64,000 nt of DNA, from the NCBI GenBank assembly GCA_903813345.2, contig CAIIXF020000007.1, forward strand, positions 18,525,564 to 18,589,563, in the 5' to 3' direction. A program made the translations under genes and the position numbers. This document shows, in pieces, positions 6,833 through 61,146 of this stretch; the first letter of the stretch is position 1; the number at the start of each line of letters is the position of its first letter. The DNA comes from Owenia fusiformis (Eukaryota > Annelida > Polychaeta > Sabellida > Oweniidae). Under the pieces are notes generated by a model. That model did not search any database. It was not told the DNA's origin and saw nothing but the letters and a program-made list of their open reading frames with translations.

Positions 6833-7909
6833 TCAGCTCACATTTAACTTTTTCAAAGTTGCATGAAACTTTTGCTTCACATAGTAGTATATTTCATAAT
6901 TTTCTTTTAACCTCATCTTCACATATTCAATTATCATCTTTGATGATGGCCTTTTCTTTTTTGACTCGGCTATTTGGTTCACTCTTGTTGAAGCATTGAA
7001 ATGTCCAATTCCTTCAAAGAAGGATGGTAGTATTCGCTCCATTGCCTTCAGTGTAAATGCATATTCCTCAGTAAGTCCAACTAGCATGTGATACTTATCA
7101 ATGTTGTGTTTGGCCTTTTGAAGTCCATATGTCATATTGGTAGAACAGATTGCTTCATGGCCACAGAACCATACAACATATCGTTTGGCGATTGGACCAA
7201 TAAAACACCAATCATCTACATCTTGAATAATGTTTATGTTTATTCTAATGCATTCTTCAAAGGTTGGATTGTTATGGCTTTTGTAATATTCAGCTCGTTT
7301 AATCATTGGCTTTCTTTTTCCATATGCAAAGTAATATGCTGATAACACATTCTCAAAAGGTTCTCTGATAATGTTGAAGTAAATTGGCTGTTTCAATCCA
7401 AAGTTCTCGAAATTTACGAAATGAATATGGCGGTCCGTCACACATTTTCTTGACTCACAATCCCTAAAAGATTCCACAAAATTAAGGATGTCATTGGTGT
7501 CATTAAGTTGTTTCTGATCATATATATATGAATGCATCATTTTAAACTTGCCATAACTGAGTTTCTTCAGGAAGGTCATCATTGTTGAAGAACCACATTT
7601 AGGCATTCTGTTGTATATCACTATATTCTGATTTGCTTTCTCATATATGGTAAATGGCAATATATCGATAGGATCTTGCTTTGTTTTGAGTTTCATTTTA
7701 TCTGTAGAATCTTTCACAGATTCTTCTGTCTTGTTAGCATTTTCTGATTCATCAATTTGTTTATGCTGTATGGTAAATCTTTTTAAGTTAGCCATCCAGG
7801 AATTGCTGTTCATTTGTATTGATGACCTTGCATTCAAAACAAAATATGTACACATACATCCAATTAACAGTCCAAGCAGAAGTCCACATTTTGTTTTAGT
7901 TATATGCAT
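6833..7909 (-). CDS. Heparan-sulfate/uronyl 2-O-sulfotransferase-like, intronless
   Basis: One uninterrupted 358-codon frame. Residues 8-25 form a hydrophobic signal anchor, giving a type II Golgi membrane protein. A Lys/Glu-rich stem (about 41-80) precedes the catalytic domain (about 85-358). The PAPS 5'-phosphosulfate loop is YNRMPKCGSS (99-108) and the 3'-phosphate motif is IIREPFENVLSAYYF (180-194). Family hallmarks follow: HIHFVNF (161-167, with the likely catalytic His), FEEC (217-220), WFCGHEAIC (247-255) and LVGLTEEY (276-283). Length matches HS2ST/uronyl 2-sulfotransferases (about 350-400 aa). These enzymes transfer sulfate from PAPS to the 2-O position of uronic acid in glycosaminoglycans. 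The substrate (heparan versus dermatan/chondroitin) cannot be told from sequence. The Met at 7909 is chosen because it directly precedes the membrane anchor. The single-exon form suggests a retrocopy or an intron-poor subfamily. It lies opposite to DNAJC13 and may be inside one of its introns. Confidence 0.88.
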   Translation of the reverse strand: MHITKTKCGLLLGLLIGCMCTYFVLNARSSIQMNSNSWMANLKRFTIQHKQIDESENANKTEESVKDSTDKMKLKTKQDPIDILPFTIYEKANQNIVIYNRMPKCGSSTMMTFLKKLSYGKFKMMHSYIYDQKQLNDTNDILNFVESFRDCESRKCVTDRHIHFVNFENFGLKQPIYFNIIREPFENVLSAYYFAYGKRKPMIKRAEYYKSHNNPTFEECIRININIIQDVDDWCFIGPIAKRYVVWFCGHEAICSTNMTYGLQKAKHNIDKYHMLVGLTEEYAFTLKAMERILPSFFEGIGHFNASTRVNQIAESKKKRPSSKMIIEYVKMRLKENYEIYYYVKQKFHATLKKLNVS

Positions 7910-8009
7910 TTTATTGGTTCACTGTGAAAACCTATCCCGTAAGTTCCACTATAATAAGTGTCATTGATTTGAATTTTCTGCATAGAACATTGAGCTATTT
8001 AATGTTTTG

Positions 8010-48555: not shown

Positions 48556-51500
48556 ATGGCAACAGCTCTATTTGCAACATTGGTGGCAGTCATTGGGCTT
48601 GTGGTTGTTACATTGGCGGCTGCAGATCCTATAAGAGAACGCGTTAACTCAGGTACCGTGCGCGTATTTTACATTTAATGTTTATGTCAGTGCAGTCCAA
48701 ATGACCCCTAAAATGAGTCTTATGGAACATGGTTGAGACTTTTGAATGATGAAACTTCATTATATTGATGAACCAAGCTTTATTTCAAATGACAATACAA
48801 GCTTGGGAAAAAAGATCTTCACCTAGACACGAGACAAGACAAGATGTATTTTAAATGTGTTTGAATTACTATGTTCACGATGTTGCTATGATCTGTTATC
48901 GCATGTTGACATTTGAAATGTAAACGTCTTGCAGTTCATAAAATCATCATAAATAAAGTTGGAACAATGTGCATGTCGATTGGAATTGAAAATCTATATA
49001 ACATGGTATAAAAAACCTGCTATCATTTCAGATGAGGAGGCTGGATTCTTCCACGATCTTGTATCTCCATTCTTGCGTAGAGAACGTCTGCGTCGTCAAC
49101 TAGATCCTAACGACCCGTTCCGATACAAGACTGATCGAACAAAGAACAGTATCACATGGCACGAGAGGGAGAACTTTATCAAAAAGCACAATGAATACAG
49201 GTCTTCAGTCGTACCCCAAGCTGCAAATATGGAGTTTATGGTACATACGTTTGCCACTCATTTCAGCATTTTTGTCTTCCTCGCCCACTTTGACATTCTG
49301 TTTATAGCAATATAGTTGAATGCAGACCATATTTTTTTTTCATTGACTGTGATAATTGAATGTCTATGATATCTACTTACTAATTCCTATATCTATGTTG
49401 TATTTTCGATTGTGTATTATAGGACTGGGATGAGGAATTGGAGGTGCTGGCCCAGGAGTGGGCAGATGCGTGTGTATGGAGCCATGGACAACCAGACAGG
49501 GATTCCTACCCCTATAGTTTCATAGGCCAGAACATACAGGCGTGGGAGTGTAAGTTAGGAAGAAAAAGACGCCAAACAGAAATTTCTACACAAACACGTT
49601 TTACTTTAACTGTTGAGTCAACAATAAAGGGTTTATTTAAGGAATAAATAATGATAGGCCATTCAATATGGTGAAATTCAGCACGAGTTGGACAGAATGT
49701 TGTACAAAGCACGAACCGAAGGTGAGTGCATTTGTACTAACATTCTGTCCAACGAGTGCTGAATTTCACCATATTGAATGGCCTATCATTATTTATTCCG
49801 ATTCAAACATAAAAATTAGTAAAAGCCGTGTCTGTGGAACGGGCATGAAGGAAGAATACGCATGTTATCCCCGGACAGAGCCCCAGATGTGCAGCTGAGA
49901 TGTGACGTCACTCAAAACAATGCAAATTGCAGATTGAATAGAGCATGGTCGTGCATCTATGGAGAATTAGAGAACGTTCTATATTGGCTATGCTGCATTC
50001 TGATTGGTTGAGAAATTCGAATAGAGCACGGTCATGTTTGAATATCTTTTTATTAATAGTAATACATGAACATGACGATATCTGATTTTCATATCTTTCT
50101 GTTTTTTAACTATCTGGAACTGACGATGCGCTGACCCCATTTGCGTCTTTCATTATTTTGACATCAAATGCGATTATTTAATTGTTTTACTTGATGCACA
50201 GGGACCTATGATGAAGAACGATCAATGGACTCCTGGTACATAGAAAAGAACGATTATACTTATGAAACAAACAGTTGTGCTCCTGGAAAACAGTGTGGTC
50301 ACTACACAGCGGTAATTATTTTTTCACATTTATTAAAATTGCCGCTATCCACTAACTATTTATCAATGTGTTTTAAAATTACATAACCGCATAACTTATA
50401 TTGTTTGAACTACTGTGTTGCAGGTGGTTTGGGCAACAACAAATAAAATCGGATGTGGTATAGCGTATTGCCCAAAGATAAAGAATTCTATTGATGATGG
50501 CTATTATATTGTATGCAATATGGGACCAGGGTAAGAGATGACTCTATCATATGAATTTAAGTTAATGACAGAAAAAATGGACACCGCTTTTATACAGTTA
50601 ATCAATTTTATGTATTTGAGTCTATGCCTGAAAATGCTACTCTTCCTCAAATATTTGACAGCTCAAACTGCGCATTTGTTTATACCCCTAATAGTGTCAC
50701 TGGGTTGACAAAGGCATGTCGCTTTGATTAATATGGACAAGTTGTTCCAAAAGCAAGCAAACTTATTTTAACTTCATGCAATTTGAATCCGCAAATCTAA
50801 GGATACCAGGGTAGGAATTTCTGTCACATTGTGTTATTTTGTTACTTGGTGGTTAATAGAACCTAGAAATAGCATCTGTCACAATAACGCTTATGTACAG
50901 GGTGGGCCAAAAACGTCCACATTTTGTGATCGCTGCATCTCTTACGAAAATGGGTCGAAATCCGAGTATTAGCAATGACGTCCACCTCGAGATAGACGCC
51001 ATTGCCTTGGTATTAGTAATATTTCAAAAGTTACAAAAATATGGACGTTCTTGCCTCTGTAGGACATCTTGTTGCATGTTAATTCACTTTTATAGAACAA
51101 CTAAGGCTTTTGTAACAATCAGTTAGTATTAGTATTATTAGTATTATTCTATCGATTCAATAATTTGAAAAGATGACACAACATCCTATTTTAGATAAAT
51201 AGAAACGTCTGGAGTTCAAGATAACAAATGAAACACTTACAGTTATGTTTAGTAATTACCAGGCATTGCAATTAATATCAGCAGCGAATAAGGTGTCCGT
51301 TCAAAGCTATTTTTGGTTATAGGGGGAATGCCCAGGGTCAGTGGCCATATATATCAGGCACCCCCTGCTCTCAGTGCCCTGTTGGAAAGACAGATTGTGA
51401 AAATAATCTATGCAGTAAGTCTTTGTGTCTATGTATCTTTGATCTTTAACATGTTTAATGGCATCGCGAATGTGCTTTACAATCGTATTAAAGGACTAAC

Positions 51501-54500
51501 ATCTGAAGATTCAGAATCATAAACTGTAAATGTCATTTAAAGAAGGAAAGAGGAAGTAACACAGAGTGATATATTAACTACCAAATAACCATCAAATAAT
51601 TAACCTTAAGTTCATTATTATTATTATGTAAGGTTATTGATGACTATGGTTTGCGTTTAGGATATTCCAACCGATGTCTTGGAAAAACGTGTAGCAATGG
51701 CGGTACTCTGATGGGAGATACCTGTCTATGCATGTGTCCGTTAGCTTACACAGGGGAAACATGTAAGTAATGCCTCGGTCACATTTGATCTACGGCAACC
51801 GTACGGCGGCCGGAGCTTGCCAAAATCTACTGAAATACGTAGCATGAAAAAATATAGGGATAAATTTTCTAAATATATTTTGTGAAGCTACGGCTGTCGT
51901 ACGACCACCGTAGGGCAAATGTGACTAATCACCTTAGCTTCTTACCTCTATTGCCTAGAGATGGAACATTTGCTCTTGGTTTTCATGCAAAAGTTATTTT
52001 GATCATGTATGTCCAAACACTAGTATTTTATAATCAGTTTTGTAAATATGAATTGGTACAATTTGTTTTATGTTTAGGTGAGACAGAAACCAACGTTGAG
52101 TTCAGGGCAACATTTGACGATAATGTTTGCTTTACTCCTGGTGATAACTTGTGTTTCACTGACACAAATCAAAATTTTCCTTGGGTCAGGCAGAATGAGA
52201 CGACGCCATCAGGGTATACAGGTCCATACACCGATCGTACACGAGGCAGAGAGGAAGGTTAGAAACATTGCCTTTCCAAAGGGAAAATAATTATGAACCA
52301 TATTAAGGAACATGTTGTGGTATTTTGGCTTTTATATACGATTTCTTAAACTAACTATACACTATACTTTTATTTATAATCTGTGACAAAGATGAATAGA
52401 ATGCACATGTTACAATTCTGAATGTTTATTTCATATATTCTCAATCACATATCCCAGTTTTATGTTTTAGAAAATTGGAAATGCAATTAATATAATGTTT
52501 CTAGGTCATTATGTGTTCATCGAGACAACTGGTGACACCCCACCATCAGGGGAGAGGGCTGGTTATCTTACCCCATTATTCAACGTGAAAGATGGCAGCA
52601 CATTAGAGTTCTATTACCACATGTATGGGGACACCATCAGCACATTAAACGTCTACACACAAGAGGGAAACAGCAAGCAGATCATCTGGACCAAGAGTGG
52701 AGATCAGAATTGGCACTGGTACAGGGCACAAGTGAACAATCTGCCTGGGGGATCATATCAGTTTCTCTTTGAGGCAGTGAAAGGATCCAGTTTTACTGGG
52801 GATATAGCCATTGATGATGTGTCTCTCATAAAGCCAGGTATGAATGAAAAATACCTATTAAGTGGCAATTAAGCGGAATAGAAAAATATAGTCATTTTTG
52901 GCCCACCCTGTATTCAGATATCCATAAATTTGGCTCAGTATAAATGAAATAAAAAGCCAAACAACCAAATACTTGTGCATGATTGTATTACTAATTTATT
53001 CAAAGAACCAAAAAATCATTTCCTTCATGAAACGTGTGCATGAATGTAGTGTTAATTTATTAGTTTATTTACATTATGTTGCCACTTTTTCAGGCACTCG
53101 CTTTCATCTATTCTTTGCAAACATTTTAGAATTCATAATGCATGAATCACATCACATTGCTTTGTTGATAATATTATGCATGATGTTTATTTGACAGCTA
53201 CAATACAACCATCAACACCAGCTCCTATTACAGGTATTATTTCTGTTTTGAATCTTTTTATTATTTTATATAATATTTGTTCCTGCAATTTTTCAAATAT
53301 ACAGGGTGACATAAAAAAACACCACCCACTAATTTTATTAATTATTCCAAAATTAGTGGGTGGTGTTTTTTGTGTCACCGTGTATGTTTGTCTAGTGAGA
53401 ACAGACTGAAACAATGATGAACATCAACCAGCTTCAACAGACATTAACAGCACAAAGAACCACCCAACTTTTATATATGCATACCTTTTTATCAGCTTGT
53501 TGCAGTCATAATTATAATAGAGTTATGCGCCCTTGTGATGCTATCGATGACCCATTGATAAAAACCAGTCTAATCATTTAATGGCATATGGATATTAATT
53601 ATGTTATCATTTATATAATATGTTCTTGTATGCTAATTTTGAATATAAAGTTTCATCCCATGATATTTTAAAGAAATATATTTTGAAAGTTGATTTAGCA
53701 AAAAATAAATAATCTATTGCAGAAATTGAATTTGAATGTTCATTCGACACTGATCTTTGTGAGATGACCCAGAGTCAGATTGATGAATTTGATTGGACAA
53801 GGCAGAGTGGAGGTACTCAGTCTGGTGGCACTGGGCCTCAGACTGATCACTCAGGAACAGGTAAGACATACAAATGTATTTCTCTTGACAAGCCACTAAA
53901 CCTGTATGTATGATGTTACTAAATTATTTTGATCAATACTAATCCACAGTAAATACAGTAATCCACACAAGATCAAGGAAAATATCTACAATGTACAGTA
54001 TACATTATATCTTATATATTAAGAAAATTACAAATAATGTTTGAAACTGAAAAGCACAAATATAACATTAAGAATAATGTTTGAAAATGAAAAATAGATG
54101 GGACAACATTTGAAGATGAATAGACAGTATCAAATCACATTTTGTATTGTATAATATAAAAACAAAATACCCTCAATTATGAAAACAGTCTCTAATGATA
54201 TCCAGATACAATAAATACATAATTTCTCTGTATAGCATTGAACAAGACTTTTTCTAAATTCTGTTTTTAAGGATCCTACATATACGCAGAGGCATCTCCC
54301 CCTGTGGAGGCAGGTGATATAGCAGAAATACAAACTCCTCTCCTTACACGTACTGGGATCAGTAGACGTAAGCTGGAGTTCTACTACCACATGCGAGGAT
54401 CTGATATGGGTACCATAAATGTCTACACAGAGACAGAAACAGCAAGAGTCCTCAGATGGACCAGAACAGGTATACTGTTGATTAAAACTCCCCTTAGACC

Positions 54501-57500
54501 TCACAACTTGAGATTTTAAGAAGAAGAAATGAACATTAGTGGTGTGAGGAAATTATGCTAATATAAATACATCTAGCTCATCAAATACGTATTTAGAGAC
54601 ATGACAAGCAAAAAGACGATCATACAGCAGGTATTAAATCTCAGTGACAAACCCTTTACGTTTTGTTCTTTAAGGTGACAATGGCGATAGATGGTCTTTG
54701 GCATCAGTTGATCTTCCAACAGGTACCTATTCACTAGTGTTTGAGTACATCAGGGGCCTTGACTGGCGTGGCGACCTTGCCCTTGATGACATGAAAGTCA
54801 TACTTTACACAGGTAATGATGAATTCATATTTGCTTTTATTGATGAGGTAAAAGGCATGGGAATGTACGGGGATCAGCCAAATTAATATTTTGGGTATAA
54901 TCAAAAGTTTTTGTTGTATATATTTTAGCATTAAAATACATTGTGTATTATAAATATTTAATCATTATTTTTCATTACTGACAACTAAATAATAATATTG
55001 AATACTGACACCCTAATAATAGGAAATCATCTTTACCAGATTTGGACACCTATTACTATATGACTATATCCCTCCCCTGCTGAATGTACAAATGTATTTT
55101 GGGAGTCAGTCTCAATGATTTTATGTTTGGCATGTAACACTAATGATTTCTGACTACCACAGGCATTAACTAATGTGTAATTTCTGTTATATTTATCACT
55201 GACCCTCATGTCATTGGAACAATGACAGTAAGTATAATAATTTTCTCTGTAATGTGTTGAGAAGTGTAAATTGTTGATTTGACCTTGAACTTGACCTAGT
55301 TCAGCTTAGATCTAAAGTTACACCATAAAAATGAACCAAAAGCTGCACTGAATAACTACAAATACTTTTTATAACAAGGTATTCCTCAAACAGCTGGTTG
55401 ATAACATTGACATCATTTTCTATTTCAGATGTCACTGCTCCAACTGATGCTCCAACAACTGCTGCAACAACTGCTGCTCCAACAACTGCTGCTGCAACAA
55501 CTGCTGCTCCAACAACTGTGGCTGCAACAACTGCTGCTCCAACAACTGTGGCTGCAACAACTGCTGCTCCAACAACTGCTGCTGCAACAACTGCTGCTGC
55601 AACAACTGCTGCTCCAACAACTGTGGCTGCAACAACTGCTGCTCCAACAACTGCTGCTGCAACAACTGCTGCTCCAACAACTGTGGCTGCAACAACCGCT
55701 GCTACAACACCTGATGGTCCAACAACTGTTGCTCAAACAGCCACAACAGAACTACCTTCACTTGGTATGTGTAATGCATCAGATGCAAGCATTATGTAAT
55801 GGATAAGACCCCTCTCATAAGGCAGGAGCATGAAGATGATGAGCATGATGTAACTTTCTATATTATTATATTTATAGATATGACCAGATGCATTGAGAGT
55901 AGTTTAAAGATTTCTTTAGATTTGGCAGCCATGTCAACTCTTGATAGTCCTTATTAAACCTTGATCCTAAATTCCAGGGGATATACTTTGGCAGTGTACA
56001 TTTGAAGCTGGATTGTGTGAAAGTACAATGGATAGTTCAATGGACTTTGAGTGGACAAGACTACAGGGGAAAACACAAAGTGGACTAACAGGGCCTTCTT
56101 CTGATCACACAATTGGTGACACTACTGGTAAGAGCTACACTGATTTTAAAAGTACATACGAGTATGTGTACAGTGTAAAGGTAAACATGTGAGAAAAACA
56201 TGATACAACATGATTGATATGTATTTAATAACTTGTTATAATTATGAAGACCACATAAGGCAAAGTTTGAAACAAGAAGGCATATATGGATAAATACAAA
56301 TATTTATATCAAATCATTCTTCCATTTTAAGGATTCTATCTCTATATCGAGGCATCCCCACCAAGGAATGAAGGGGACAAGGCCAGACTGGTGACTCCTA
56401 GCATAACATCTTCCAGTGAGATGGTTCTCACATTCTACAGTCACATGTATGGGGCTACAATGGGTACACTGAATGTCTACAGGAGAACAGGAAGTAATGA
56501 CAACCTCATCATGTCACTCAATGGAGACAGGGGAGACATCTGGAATTTGGAAACGGCTGTTCTTGATCCAGGCTCATTTTCTCTGGTGTTTGAAGCAATG
56601 AGAGGGTCTGACTGGAGTTCAGATCTTGCCATTGATGATATTACGGTTACTGCCAGTCCAAAGGGCAGAGCTGATATTGCTTTTGTGGTAGATGGCTCTG
56701 GAAGTGTCGGAGCTGGTAACTTTGAAAAGATGAAATCATTTGTAAGAGATGTCACTAATGACTTGACAATTGGTAGTGATGCTGTGCAGGTTGCATTTGT
56801 TCTGTTTAGTGACAGCTCTGCTGTGGAGTTTGGTCTCAATGCATTCACTGACAAAGAGAGTCTTGCTAGTGCAATAAATCAGGTTATATACAAAGGTGGC
56901 GCTACAAATATAGCGTCGGGATTACGGAGTCTCAGACAAGATATTTTTGTTGCATCCATGGGGGATCGTGCTACTGCCCCTAATGTTGGGATCCTACTCA
57001 GTGATGGGCCCTCAAACTGGGATGCTGAAAGTACTGTTCCAGAGGCTCAGGAAGCAAGGGCTACTGGCATAGAGCTGTTTGCTGTTGGTGTAGGACCAGA
57101 TGCAGATAAAGATGAAATGCTGCAAATTACAAACTCAGAGGAGAGAGTCATGGCTGTTTCAAACTTTGACACACTTAGTACCATGAAGAATTCTATCATA
57201 GGATCTACAAGAAACGGTGAGTATTGTCTTCTTGGGCCTTCCATAGAGCTAGAGATGCTATGGTAGTCAGAAATATAATAGCAAAATAAATTATATATGA
57301 TGAAAAATACTGAACATATACAGCTGTCACTGTAGAAAAAACTAAAGCTTTTTTCTTATTTCAGATGAGAATGAATGTGTTAGTAGTCCATGCCGTAATG
57401 GAGGAGTTTGTTTGGACCGTCTCAATACATTTGTCTGTGAATGTTCCTCAGGTTTCAGTGGAGACACATGTGAACAAAGTGAGTTTGCTATTCAGCAATT

Positions 57501-60500
57501 CTGATCTAACTTAAATGAAGCCACAATGTCACTTGTATGAAATGTAAAATTAAAAAAGTTATTTGGAACAAAATTCATCAACTAATTAATAGTGCTGTTT
57601 TTATTTCACTTGCATTCTTTCACTTGGTGTCAGCGGTTGCCATATGTAATAACAACTGATACACTTTAACTATTTACAGATGGTGACATTATGTCATGTT
57701 ATTGCCTTGTTATTTTATGTCTTGATATTGAATATAATTCTGGATTAATTTTAGACTGTGTAAGTCAAGCCGATGTGATCTTCGCGATCGATACCTCTGG
57801 CAGTATAGCTGTCCGTGATTTTAGGAAAATCCTGACATTTGTTGGTAAAGTATCAAAGCAGCTCCAAGTTGGCCAGAATGCCAGGATTGGTCTCGTTACT
57901 TTCAGTTCAACAGCGAAAGTGGAGTTCCACCTGAATGAACATATGGATGTCAGATCAGTGTTATCCTCCCTGGATAAGGTTAAATATAGATATGGTGCAA
58001 CTAACACACAGGCTGCTCTAAAAATGATGCAGAATGATATGTTTACCACAGATAATGGTGATAGAGCAGCACCTAATGTTGTCATCTTGGTGACAGATGG
58101 AATCTCTACAGGTACATTTACTTAGTGTCAAAACATACAACATACAATAGATTTTATATTACAATTCAGAATTGAGTTATAAGTACACGTTATTCCAATG
58201 ACACAGGGTCTGTTCAAGAACATTCAATATCAATTCAACAATAATAGTTTTAGCACATACTATAAGTTCAACAACAATTGTTCTTGAACACTCAATACCA
58301 ATTCAACAATAATAGTTTTAGCACATCCTATAAGTTCAACAACAATTGTTCTTGAACATCCAATATCAATTCAACAATAATAGTTTTAGCACATCCTATA
58401 AGCTCAACAATAATTGTTCTAGAACATTCAATATCAATTCAACAATAATAGTTTTAGCACATCCTATAAGTTCAACAACAATTGTTCAAGAATATTCAAT
58501 ATCAATTCAACAATAATAGTTTTAGCACATCCTATAAGCTCAACAATAATTGTTCTTGAACATTCAATATCAATTCAACAATAATAGTTTTAGCACATCC
58601 TATAAGCTCAACAATAATTGTTCTTGAACATTCAATATCAATTCAACAATAATAGTTTTAGCACATCCTATAAGCTCAACAATAATTGTTCTAGAACATT
58701 CAATATCAATTCAACAATAATAGTTTTAGCACATCCTATAAGTTCAACAACAATTGTTCTAGAACATTCGATATCAATTCAACAATAATAGTTTTAGCAC
58801 ATCCTATAAGCTCAACAACAATTGTTCAAGAACATTCGATATCAATCCAACAATAATAGTTTTAGGACATCCTATAAGCTCAACAACCATTGTTCAAGAA
58901 CATTCGATATCAATTCAACAATAATAGTTTTAGCACATCCTATAAGTTCAACAACAATTGTTCTAGAACATTCGATATCAATTCAACAATAATAGTTTTA
59001 GCACATCCTATAAGTTCAACAACAATTGTTCTAGAACATTCGATATCAATTCAACAATAATAGTTTTAGCACATCCTATAAGTTCAACAACAATTGTTCT
59101 AGAACATTCGATATCAATTCAACAATAATAGTTTTAGCACATCCTATAAGTTCAACAACAATTGTTCAAGAACATTCGATATCAATTCAACAATGATAGT
59201 TTTAGCACATCCTATAAGTTCAACAACAATTGTTCTTGAACATTCAATATTAATTCAACATAGTATCCAATTATAGTTCAATAATAGCCTTTCTAGTGTG
59301 TTCGATTAATAACAGATCACTTATAATGTTCTACTACATTCAACTGCATGAAGTTGAATAAGAAAATACTGAATACCAAATCATGAAATGATTACATTAC
59401 AGTTGAACAGGAGAATACTCTACCAAATGCAGAATCACTGAAATTAACTGGTGCTCATATATTTGTGATTGGTGTTGGCAGTTTTGTTGATGTTGATGAA
59501 CTAAGTGGGATAGCATCTTCCCCAAGTGAAAGCAATATGATTTTGGTGACAGATTTTGATGCCCTAGACACAGTTGTAATGACAGTTGCCGAGCCAATAT
59601 GCACAGGTAATTTCATTTCAGTATATGAAACATGCATGAACCTTTATCCAATTCTGACATTCAATGCTTTACTGAAGCTGTCATTAACATGAAAACCATC
59701 TGATAAAATCGAATGAACTATTTCAGGCCAGAATTCTTGCAGCTCGAGCCCATGTCAAAATGGTGGACAATGTTTTAATAAGGTGAATGGCTACACATGT
59801 TCCTGCCCATCTGACAAAGGAGGACTCTCATGTGAAGTGGGTGAGTTAAAAAGTGATCATAGTGTACATGTTCTTGAAAACAACTAGGAAATGACAAAAA
59901 GAGTAAAACATTGATAGTTTTTTGTGAACAACAACCGAGTTACATCATGACATTATGAATATGGTGTATTTCCAGATTGCCCGCGAAATATAGATTTGGC
60001 TTTCCTCATTGATGAATCTGGGAGTATTGGGTTGGATAACTTCAGAAAGGTCATGGACTTTGTCATGGCAATTGCCAAGAATGTGGCCACAGGTACAGTG
60101 CATGAACACCTACAGTATAAGGAATGTAGCATAAGCAATGGTTCAATGAAACAAGAAATATATCCACTTAATGTTAAAACAACATCCACAGAATGGACAT
60201 ATAAAAACCACATTTCCATATTTAGTTCTACAATAAATAATAATCTTTACACTTTTTCACTTTGACGGAATCATGTGCTATCTGAAAATAAAGACAATTT
60301 CTTTGAAGATTAGACTCGACCTTAACCTGACTTCTCCCTCCATCTGGGGGTGGGGTGTGGATCTTAAGTAGAATGTACATATAAGCAAGTTTACATGTAT
60401 TTTAAGGCTCACGAATAGGTGTTGTAACCTTTAGTGACAATGCTGCAGAAGAGTTTAACATGGTAAAACATGGGGACAAGCAGCAAATTCTGGATGGCAT

Positions 60501-61146
60501 TGAGGCTATCAAGTATTCAGGTGGGGCAACCCACACAGCAGCTGGACTGCAAATGCTCAGGGAATCAACTTTCCAAACAAACAATGGGAACCGTAATGGT
60601 AAGATCCTTTGAAGCTGCTCACTATCATGTAGAGTGAGAAAATTTGTGAACTTTTTCATTCATCATGTCATACGAGGGTCGTTCAATATATTCATTAATA
60701 AATTGATCAAGTCTATAAAAATTCAGATAATCTATTGAGAGTAATGAGAAGGTTAGCATACTGGGCATATATGAACTGTATAATGAATTATTTTTGATTC
60801 TTTTGAAGTACAGCTTTATAATACGTTTAGAGATGAGGGTATGGACAGTTCTTTTCTTTTATATGTTTTCATGAAAGCTATTTCAATTTAAGGTGTACCA
60901 GATGTAGCTATAGTCATAACAGATGGCATTTCCACAGTGAACGAAGTGAATACTGGAACACAAGCCAGTCTTCTGAAGTCCATCGGTGTTGAAGTGTGGT
61001 CAATAGGAATCGGACAGATAGATAAAGAGAGGCAGAATGAGCTCTCAGAAGTAGCCACTAGTGATAGTACCATCAAAACAGTTTCAGATTTTGAATCTCT
61101 GCAAGGGCTTGTAAATGAGATTGTCTCAACTTTATGTTCATCTTAG
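48556..61146 (+). CDS. Secreted CAP-EGF-MAM2-mucin-MAM-vWA-EGF-vWA-EGF-vWA mosaic protein
   Basis: Twenty-three coding exons: 48556-48652, 49032-49240, 49423-49549, 50202-50311, 50424-50530, 51323-51414, 51661-51762, 52078-52257, 52505-52837, 53198-53233, 53723-53860, 54272-54469, 54675-54812, 55429-55764, 55978-56127, 56332-57216, 57365-57478, 57755-58111, 59403-59606, 59727-59840, 59976-60092, 60407-60598, 60893-61146. They sum to 4590 nt in one frame, 1529 aa. Intron phases are 1,0,1,0,2 through the CAP region and phase 1 at every later junction. A clear signal peptide (residues 1-24, cleavage near TLAAA) and no membrane segment or GPI-like tail indicate secretion. Modules: CAP, EGF, MAM1, MAM2, Thr/Ala/Pro linker, MAM3-vWA1, EGF2, vWA2, EGF3, vWA3, ending four codons after a final Cys-Ser-Ser. 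An extracellular-matrix, adhesion or egg/sperm-coat role is plausible from the parts but not shown. Confidence 0.9.
49641..49799. mobile_element. 159-bp near-perfect hairpin MITE in intron 3
   Basis: GGAATAAATAATGATAGGCC at 49641 is mirrored by GGCCTATCATTATTTATTCC ending at 49799. The arms of about 70 bp carry GCCATTCAATATGGTGAAAT and GTTGGACAGAATGTT with only a few mismatches, so it is young. Confidence 0.9.
50898..51059. mobile_element. MITE, about 162 bp, TA-flanked, intron 5
   Basis: Left CAGGGTGGGCCAAAAACGTC faces GGACGTTCTTGCCTCTG at the right end, which is a decayed mirror. TA lies on both sides. Mariner-like. A lone end of the same type (GGCCCACCCTG) is at 52900-52910 in intron 9. 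Confidence 0.65.
51661..51762 (+). other. EGF-like module 1 of the mosaic gene
   Basis: One exon, phase 1 on both sides, reading RCLGKTCSNGGTLMGDTCLC then CPLAYTGETC. It has the CxNGG..CxC..Y.G..C pattern with an extra Cys and no calcium-binding consensus at the start. Confidence 0.8.
51778..51925. mobile_element. 148-bp palindromic MITE in intron 7
   Basis: GTCACATTTG..CTACGGC..CCGTACG is mirrored by CGTACGACCACCGTAGGGCAA followed by ATGTGAC, starting 15 bases after the exon 7 donor. Confidence 0.75.
52078..54812 (+). other. MAM modules 1 and 2 of the mosaic gene
   Basis: MAM1 is split over exons 8-9 (FRATFDDNVCF, DTNQNFPWVRQNETTPS, TLEFYYHMYGDTISTLNVYT, DIAIDDVSL). A 12-residue TIQPSTPAPIT linker exon (53198-53233) follows. 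MAM2 spans exons 11-13 (FECSFDTDLCEMTQ, FDWTRQSGGT, KLEFYYHMRGSDMGTINVYT, YSLVFEYIRGLDWRGDLALD). MAM2 has one more intron than MAM1 in its second half. MAM domains mediate extracellular protein-protein contacts. Confidence 0.9.
53302..53382. mobile_element. 81-bp mariner-like MITE in intron 10
   Basis: CAGGGTGACATAAAAAA faces TTTTTTGTGTCACCGTG, with a near-perfect inner stem CACCACCCACTAATTTT / AAAATTAGTGGGTGGTG and TA on both flanks. Same family as 25360-25442. Confidence 0.9.
55429..55764 (+). other. Thr/Ala/Pro mucin-like repeat exon
   Basis: A single 336-nt exon encodes tandem (A)PTTAAATTA / PTTVAATTA repeats, likely heavily O-glycosylated. At DNA level it is a GCTGCTNCAACAACT-type array. 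Because no unit contains a stop, frames in other phases and on the minus strand also stay open (poly-LLQQ and Cys/Ser-rich). I treat those as shadows. Confidence 0.9.
55978..57216 (+). other. MAM3 fused in one exon to vWA1
   Basis: Exon 15 is the N-half of MAM3 (CTFEAGLCESTMDSSMDFEW). Exon 16 (885 nt) runs from the MAM3 second half (YSHMYGATMGTLNVY, SDLAIDDITV) straight into a complete vWA: DIAFVVDGSGSVG, then VQVAFVLFSD, GGATNIASGL, APNVGILLSDG, IELFAVGVGP. All three MIDAS loops are present (DxSxS, Thr of GGATN, Asp of SDG). Unlike vWA2 and vWA3, this vWA has no internal intron. Confidence 0.92.
57365..59606 (+). other. EGF2 and vWA2 of the mosaic gene
   Basis: EGF2 (57365-57478) starts DENEC and has C-R-N-G-G-V-C, then FVCECSSGFSG, a calcium-binding-type EGF. 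vWA2 exons 57755-58111 and 59403-59606 carry DVIFAIDTSGSI, IGLVTFSSTAKVEF, YGATNTQAAL, NVVILVTDG and HIFVIGVG, so the MIDAS is intact. The intron between them holds the 68-bp minisatellite. Confidence 0.9.
58213..59265. repeat. Minisatellite, about 15 copies of a 68-bp unit, intron 18
   Basis: The unit contains AACATTC(A/G)ATATCAATT, CAACAATAATAGTTTTAGC, ACATCCTATAAG(T/C)TCAAC and AACAATTGTTC(T/A)(T/A)GAAC. The last block is nearly self-complementary, so every unit can form a short hairpin. Copies differ by a few substitutions (ATTCAAT versus ATTCGAT; TTCTTG, TTCTAG or TTCAAG). It occupies most of the intron inside vWA2. Confidence 0.93.
59727..61146 (+). other. EGF3 and vWA3 of the mosaic gene
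   Basis: EGF3 (59727-59840) reads SCSSSPCQNGGQC.. then YTCSCPSDKGGLSC. vWA3 is split over three exons (59976-60092, 60407-60598, 60893-61146) with DLAFLIDESGSIG, IGVVTFSDNA, GGATHTAAGL, VAIVITDG, VWSIGIG; MIDAS intact. The protein ends VNEIVSTLCSS. Confidence 0.9.

What the first reader, a model, noticed from the sequence alone, without database searches (positions are those of the whole stretch)
48556..61146. Possibly undescribed CAP-EGF-MAM-MAM-mucin-MAM-vWA-EGF-vWA-EGF-vWA secreted protein
The exons join in one 4590-nt frame, so the architecture is well supported. CAP domains, MAM domains and vWA/EGF strings are each common. I do not recall a family that begins with CAP and continues into three MAM and three vWA domains with a mucin linker. 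It joins a putative ligand-cavity domain to adhesive MAM and metal-dependent vWA modules.
Basis: partly seen in the sequence, partly recalled or inferred. Interest (0 to 1): 0.75.

Follow-up and report, generated by a model that had tools for sequence, protein, structure and literature searches.

The report
Mosaic secreted worm matrix-like protein
A worm gene joins a lipid-pocket-type CAP domain to three MAM and three metal-site vWA domains, and looks like an old recombination of two gene families that live in the same genome; the parts are ordinary, the combination is unusual.

Summary
Twenty-three exons at 48556-61146 (+) splice with 22 GT/AG introns into one 4590-nt frame, 1529 aa. Pfam finds one CAP, three MAM, three VWA and two EGF domains. 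The cysteine-rich hinge/EGF after CAP and the T/A-rich mucin-like linker are read from sequence.

The protein is not isolated. An inverted gene pair on contig C2 has the same propeptide-CAP-hinge-EGF-MAM head: 42% identity over 443 aa for one copy, with matching intron phases from CAP to EGF. PAN domains then follow instead of VWA. Two genes on the window's own contig share the tail MAM-VWA-EGF-VWA-EGF-VWA, 37% over 791 and 754 aa, with no CAP match in the DNA searched. The window gene therefore looks like an old mosaic of two resident families. Both shared blocks argue against a false gene merge, but no transcript was seen.

The genome is annelid and consistent with, not proved to be, Owenia fusiformis. 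My paper searches showed no CAP+MAM protein; UniProt/InterPro could not be searched. Function is inferred: a secreted matrix, tube or mucus linker with a CAP ligand pocket. New variant of a known kind.

The parts
48556..48652 (+). exon 1: start codon and hydrophobic signal-peptide-like N-terminus
   Evidence: hydrophobicity
49032..49240 (+). exon 2: propeptide-like stretch and start of CAP (HNEYR, CAP3 motif)
   Evidence: propeptide aligns with the C2 paralogs
49423..49549 (+). exon 3: CAP (GQNI, CAP4 motif)
50202..50311 (+). exon 4: CAP (start of GHYTAVVW, CAP1-like)
50424..50530 (+). exon 5: CAP, C-terminal part
51323..51414 (+). exon 6: CRISP/GLIPR1-like cysteine-rich hinge
   Evidence: the GLIPR1 alignment runs through it
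51661..51762 (+). exon 7: EGF-like module, not a Pfam hit at E 0.001
52078..52837 (+). exons 8 (52078-52257) and 9 (52505-52837): MAM1
53198..53233 (+). exon 10: 36-nt P/T-rich linker mini-exon
53723..54812 (+). exons 11 (53723-53860), 12 (54272-54469), 13 (54675-54812): MAM2
55429..55764 (+). exon 14: T/A/P-rich mucin-like linker, 15-bp tandem repeat
55978..56654 (+). exon 15 (55978-56127) and first part of exon 16: MAM3
56655..57216 (+). rest of exon 16: VWA1 (MIDAS-type DGSGS, T, D), in one exon with the end of MAM3
57365..57478 (+). exon 17: EGF
57755..59606 (+). exons 18 (57755-58111) and 19 (59403-59606): VWA2 (DTSGS, T, D)
58211..59260 (.). 68-bp tandem repeat, about 15 copies, in intron 18
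59727..59840 (+). exon 20: EGF
59976..61146 (+). exons 21 (59976-60092), 22 (60407-60598), 23 (60893-61146): VWA3 (DESGS, T, D) and stop codon

Best explanation
One gene encodes a secreted mosaic protein. Its head (propeptide-CAP-hinge-EGF-MAM) and its tail (MAM-VWA-EGF-VWA-EGF-VWA) are kin to two families of the same annelid genome, joined long ago, most likely through phase-1 introns. Likely action (inferred): the three VWA domains, each with a complete metal-site motif, and the MAM domains hold the protein in an extracellular matrix, tube lining or mucus and to other copies. The T/A-rich linker acts as a glycosylated spacer. The anchored CAP domain presents a pocket for a sterol, lipid or metal. 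Shown here: gene model, domains, motifs, kinship of head and tail. Inferred: secretion, metal and ligand binding, matrix location, route of joining.
For: Gene model and domains. Head: window residues 28-449 match the spliced minus-strand C2 copy at 42% over 443 aa, E 3e-113; the plus-strand copy gives 42% over 426 aa, E 1e-105. Exon-end phases of window exons 2-7 (0,1,0,2,1,1) agree in both C2 copies, 6 of 6, and the EGF-to-MAM junction reads C-E-T in all three. Tail: residues 734-1529 match exon pieces of C7:30233440-30237158 at 37% over 791 aa, E 1.7e-177, in the same order, and of C7:13609138-13601208 at 37% over 754 aa, E 1e-162. C7:30.23 also reaches a stop soon after its third VWA (read by eye). 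The five best non-window matches of the MAM3-VWA1 query, of 123 matches listed, are all on C7. MAM3 end and VWA1 lie in one exon. No hydrophobic stretch of transmembrane kind (19-aa mean 1.6 or more) lies outside the first 28 residues. Nearest solved relatives: GLIPR1 for CAP (5e-37), MDGA1 for MAM (3.4e-28), collagen VI alpha 3 (1.3e-127, summed over 8 stretches) and mussel proximal thread matrix protein 1 (1.6e-43, 2 stretches) for VWA1. D-x-S-x-S, T and D in 3 of 3 VWAs (motif recalled). CAP proteins bind sterols (PMC4118828, passages) and metal through two conserved histidines (PMC6900432, passages); two histidines align with GLIPR1 here (positions recalled).
Against: No transcript, protein or tissue data. 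One of the two recalled glutamates of the CAP tetrad is a glutamine (GQN), though CAP4 allows E or Q. Window MAM1 is 36-37% identical to the C2 MAMs but 45% to the last C7:30.23 MAM, and the C2 MAMs are nearer to window MAM3 (41-42%), so the kinship of the head is firm only up to the EGF. MAM1 has 2 exons, the C2 MAMs 3. The MAM1-to-MAM2 junction (exons 9-11) has no direct support from a paralog. The 11-sequence VWA tree (supports 0.11-0.92) does not show clean pairing of VWA1, 2 and 3 with the paralogs' VWAs. Mucin-type glycosylation rests on composition alone, and only one N-glycosylation sequon was found.
Confidence: 0.5

Rival explanations
1. Two or three neighbouring genes were merged on paper: a CAP-EGF-MAM gene and a MAM-VWA-EGF gene (break between exons 9 and 11, or around the mucin exon).
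For: The head alone and the tail alone each exist in other genes, and the seam MAM1/MAM2 is where they would meet. A scan of all 22 introns for hydrophobic ATG starts found 10; 4 of them, all in intron 5 (CAP to hinge), have a GT of the right phase. No transcript was seen.
Against: Introns at the seam are only 360 and 489 bp, and around the mucin exon 616 and 213 bp. At the seam (introns 9 and 10) two hydrophobic ATG starts exist, neither with a GT of the right phase; introns 13 and 14 have none. The intron-5 starts would cut CAP from a hinge that follows CAP in GLIPR1 and in both C2 copies. All splice sites keep frame and phase.
Confidence: 0.07
2. A single gene whose product is a venom, defence or immune effector: CAP is the active part and MAM/VWA bind prey or microbial surfaces.
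For: CAP proteins are prominent in annelid venom-gland transcriptomes (Glycera, PMC4202326; Eulalia, PMC7911839; passages). CLEC18 is a CAP-EGF-lectin protein tied to innate immunity (PMC11103991, passages).
Against: Eight further Pfam domains after the CAP-hinge-EGF part (3 MAM, 3 VWA, 2 EGF) are unlike the CAP proteins in the passages seen. The VWA relatives with the best E-values are matrix proteins. If this is an oweniid, I recall none described as venomous.
Confidence: 0.17
3. An egg-coat, sperm or seminal protein: CAP and MAM are both found in sperm-egg recognition proteins, and mosaic proteins are common there.
For: Recalled biology of CRISPs and zonadhesin. A paper on mouse sperm-egg proteins that uses both terms was seen in the listing only (PMC3948348).
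Against: No ZP or VWD domain in the protein. Nothing here points to gonads.
Confidence: 0.13
4. Besides the full protein, a short form starts at the in-frame ATG 57691, just upstream of exon 18, giving VWA2-EGF-VWA3 with its own hydrophobic N-terminus.
For: MSCYCLVILCL... runs open into VWA2 in frame; it is the only one of the 10 hydrophobic intronic starts that does so.
Against: T-rich intron ends often translate as hydrophobic residues. A well-formed acceptor ends at 57754.
Confidence: 0.06

Closest known systems
C2 inverted gene pair in the same genome (C2:29019012-29026968 + and C2:29049898-29039739 -, spans seen so far)
   Same: Propeptide-CAP-hinge-EGF-MAM in the same order, 42% identity, same exon-end phases for exons 2-7
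   Different: After one MAM come PAN domains (plus-strand copy: 3 Pfam PAN_1 stretches); no VWA match at E 0.01 in the 39 kb fetched; MAM in 3 exons, not 2
C7 MAM-VWA-EGF genes of the same genome (C7:30215430-30237158 +, C7:13610497-13601208 -)
   Same: MAM then VWA-EGF-VWA-EGF-VWA in the same order, 37% identity
   Different: No CAP match at E 0.01 in the DNA fetched around them (C7:30218001-30228000 not fetched); other MAM copies and, at 30.2 Mb, further VWA/EGF matches upstream
CLEC18 (human CAP-EGF-CTLD protein; PMC11103991, passages)
   Same: CAP followed by EGF modules and then a binding domain
   Different: C-type lectin domain in place of MAM and VWA
GLIPR1 / CRISP
   Same: CAP plus cysteine-rich hinge; best solved relative, 5e-37
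   Different: Solved chains are 205-221 aa, with no room for MAM or VWA
Mussel proximal thread matrix protein 1; collagen VI alpha 3
   Same: Tandem VWA domains of extracellular fibres (2 and 8 matched stretches)
   Different: The solved mussel chain is 454 aa with two VWA stretches; CAP or MAM there was not looked for
Coral TSP-1 and VWA skeletal matrix protein (PMC4890752, passages)
   Same: Lineage-restricted mosaic of common matrix domains with three VWAs
   Different: TSP-1 and F5/F8 C domains; no CAP or MAM named

Membership tests
CAP superfamily | CAP domain above Pfam cut-off | tested here: met
   PF00188 74.2 bits, cut-off 21.1
CAP superfamily | CAP3 HNxxR and CAP4 G(EQ)N(ILV) motifs (as given in PMC4118828) | tested here: met
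   HNEYR and GQNI
CAP superfamily | His/Glu tetrad, two His and two Glu (positions recalled) | tested here: inconclusive
   Both His and one Glu align with GLIPR1; the GEN Glu is Gln here
CLEC18-like CAP-EGF-lectin proteins | C-type lectin domain after CAP-EGF | tested here: not met
   No lectin domain among the 7 Pfam families reported
VWA matrix proteins (collagen VI / matrilin / PTMP1 kind) | Several VWA domains with complete metal-site motif (recalled) | tested here: met
   3 of 3 VWAs have D-x-S-x-S, T and D
VWA matrix proteins (collagen VI / matrilin / PTMP1 kind) | Deposition in extracellular matrix | not testable with these tools
   Needs protein localisation
Resident CAP-hinge-EGF-MAM head family | Colinear head with the same intron phases | tested here: met
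   for CAP to EGF; MAM1 itself not resolved as an orthologue and differs in exon number
Resident MAM-(VWA-EGF)2-VWA tail family | Colinear MAM-VWA-EGF-VWA-EGF-VWA | tested here: met
   two paralogs
Mucin-type O-glycosylated linker | O-glycans on T/S/P-rich repeats | not testable with these tools
   Composition only: 43 T and 12 P of 111

The most novel reading that the evidence does not exclude
In this annelid a CAP-hinge-EGF-MAM head is a reusable cassette set on different matrix-binding tails (VWA-EGF here, PAN in the C2 pair), so that one lipid- or metal-binding CAP head is delivered to different extracellular scaffolds. If so, this is a case of domain mosaicism in which relatives of both halves still exist in one genome, and a new annelid matrix family.
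Probability: 0.35. Interest if true: 0.55.

Novelty: new variant of a known kind. Interest (0 to 1): 0.4.

Why it matters
CAP proteins are widespread, yet what the domain does outside a few sterol- and metal-binding cases is unsettled. Here a CAP domain is tied to modules with clear matrix-binding precedents, and natural variants with a different tail lie in the same genome. The pair is therefore a ready comparison: same head, different anchor. It is also a compact example of exon shuffling, probably through phase-1 introns, whose relatives on both sides can still be named.

Tried and rejected
A mollusc origin was the first guess. It was dropped when the annelid erythrocruorin linker domain (PF16915; its annelid restriction is recalled) gave 3 matches, all over the cut-off. 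The species stays unproved. Size (498.26 Mb here; 505.8 Mb and 12 chromosome-scale scaffolds for Owenia, PMC9977687, passages) is close. The 38 forkhead matches fall on nine contigs, C1, C3-C6 and C8-C11. Owenia has Fox genes on nine of 12 chromosomes (PMC9539403, passages), but the numbers named there (1, 2, 3, 5, 6, 7, 8, 11, 12) do not agree with these contig numbers. COX1 gave no match, so no mitochondrial check was possible.

A false gene merge was tested by intron sizes, paralogs and internal starts (for seven intervals, one nested in another; for all 22 introns), and found unlikely. The start scan is crude: a hydrophobicity threshold and GT phase only. MAM1 as the orthologue of the C2 MAM was tested and not supported. 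Clean pairing of the three VWAs with the paralogs' VWAs was not shown by the tree.

The Pfam CAP search of the genome (16 matches) missed the window's own CAP because it is split over exons. The absence of CAP beside the C7 genes is therefore weak evidence. The C7:13.6 region was probed with the window's CAP only, the C7:30.2 region with three CAP queries.

In print: searches aimed at the combination were 3 papers; 53 papers, 20 listed; 4; 2; 6. No title or abstract start in those lists names a protein joining CAP and MAM. Passages opened: PMC4460706 (CAP and MAM in different proteins), PMC10448888 and PMC4890752; no such protein there. PMC3948348 was seen in the listing only. Searches (Owenia, tube, proteome; 11 papers, listing only; Owenia, extracellular matrix, von Willebrand; 0 papers) added nothing. 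PMC11371463 (passages) was of no further use. UniProt and InterPro were not available. No structure was predicted: the domains have solved relatives by sequence.
Full report
What is there. The window lies at G000:C7:18525564-18589563 of a 498-Mb animal genome. Joining 23 exons between 48556 and 61146 gives one 4590-nt frame and a 1529-aa product. All 22 introns are GT/AG and 19 of 22 are phase 1. Introns are 112 to 1291 bp. Pfam confirms one CAP, three MAM, three VWA and two EGF domains. Between CAP and MAM1 lie a cysteine-rich hinge and an EGF-like module (10 Cys) that Pfam does not report at E 0.001. The hinge is covered by the alignment with GLIPR1, and both align with the C2 paralogs. Exon 14 is a T/A/P-rich linker (111 aa counted) built of a 15-bp tandem repeat. 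The N-terminus is strongly hydrophobic and no other stretch reaches a transmembrane-type score.

Is it one gene? Three lines of evidence say so. First, the head. Two inverted paralogs on C2 carry propeptide, CAP, hinge, EGF and MAM in the same order. BLASTP of the window head against the minus-strand copy gives 42% identity over 443 aa, E 3e-113. Exon-end phases of exons 2-7 are the same in both copies, and the EGF-to-MAM junction codes C-E-T in all three genes. By region the identity with the plus-strand copy is 30% in the propeptide, 53% in CAP, 45% in hinge+EGF and 36% in MAM1. Second, the tail. Exon pieces of C7:30233440-30237158 match residues 734-1529 at 37% over 791 aa, E 1.7e-177, and pieces of C7:13609138-13601208 at 37% over 754 aa, in the same order MAM-VWA-EGF-VWA-EGF-VWA. 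Third, no convincing internal start. A crude scan of all 22 introns for hydrophobic ATG starts found 10. Four have a GT of the right phase, all in intron 5 between CAP and hinge, where both C2 copies and GLIPR1 are continuous. One (57691) runs straight into VWA2 and could at most give a short form. The seam between MAM1 and MAM2 has two hydrophobic ATGs without a fitting donor. It is the one place without support from a paralog.

Where it comes from. The plus-strand C2 paralog goes on into PAN domains (3 PAN_1 stretches, E 1.2e-27), not VWA; PAN matches follow in the other copy too. The C7 genes show no CAP in the DNA fetched. Comparing the listed matches by eye, I saw no other CAP match within about 50 kb of a same-strand MAM or VWA match. 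Those searches are exon by exon, scored only part of their candidates (MAM 150 of 276, VWA 150 of 685) and are lower bounds; even missed the window's own CAP. The window gene is thus best read as a mosaic: head of one family, tail of another, with the tail family on its own contig. In the genome-wide search with MAM3-VWA1, the five best non-window matches of 123 listed are on C7 (117 of 494 candidates scored). Identities of 37-42% say that the joining is old, so a recent assembly error is unlikely. Against a simple picture, MAM1 is not closest to the C2 MAM, and the VWAs do not pair one to one in a small tree. A further CAP-EGF gene, C10:10993323-10996259, is a single open frame of 978 aa with CAP, an EGF-like stretch and then a long T/S/P-rich region. 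CAP-EGF heads on different tails therefore recur in this genome.

How it may work. Solved relatives are GLIPR1 for CAP, MDGA1 and an SR-C-like receptor for MAM, and collagen VI alpha 3 and mussel proximal thread matrix protein 1 for VWA. All three VWAs keep the metal-site motif (motif recalled). CAP proteins bind sterols (PMC4118828, passages) and metals through two conserved histidines (PMC6900432, passages). Two histidines and one glutamate align with GLIPR1; the other glutamate is glutamine (positions recalled). The CAP3 and CAP4 motifs, in the form given in PMC4118828, are met. I infer a secreted linker: VWA and MAM hold it to matrix and to other copies, the T/A-rich stretch spaces the two halves, and CAP offers a ligand pocket. 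Matrix, tube lining or mucus is the likeliest place. Venom or immune roles are the main rival.

Known or new. CLEC18 is the nearest published design that I found: CAP, EGF, EGF-like, then a lectin domain (PMC11103991, passages). Corals show that common matrix domains are reshuffled into lineage-restricted proteins (PMC4890752, passages). Full-text search for CAP domain with MAM domain gave two papers; in the one opened the domains were in different proteins. That is no proof of novelty, since UniProt and InterPro were out of reach and the gene may already be annotated in its genome project. I rate it a new arrangement of known modules.

The organism. The annelid haemoglobin-linker domain is present (its restriction to annelids is recalled).

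Noticed in passing
window 6836-7918 (-): Single-exon 361-aa ORF with a Sulfotransfer_2 domain (E 3.7e-9).
   Followed up: partly
window about 14.8-24.2 kb (+): Exons that look like RME-8/DNAJC13 (RME-8_N at E 0.0045 in one of five ORFs scanned, below the cut-off; name otherwise recalled).
   Followed up: partly
window 58211-59260: 68-bp tandem repeat, about 15 copies, 95% matches, filling most of intron 18.
   Followed up: no
window about 49658-49782, intron 3: Much alike peptides read on both strands, so a short inverted repeat, perhaps a small transposon.
   Followed up: no
G000:C2:29040420-29040720 (-): In one C2 paralog a PAN exon has an in-frame stop and a frame break, so that copy may be damaged.
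   Followed up: partly
G000:C1:37796570-37866953: A very large VWA array, part of it with nearly identical units about 1885 bp apart.
   Followed up: no
L013, G000:C10:10993323-10996259: 978-aa single open frame: CAP, EGF-like module, ShK-like cysteine stretches (by eye) and a long T/S/P-rich region.
   Followed up: partly
G000:C6:23633739-23676322 (-): Dense MAM cluster, including the best MAM matches of the genome.
   Followed up: no
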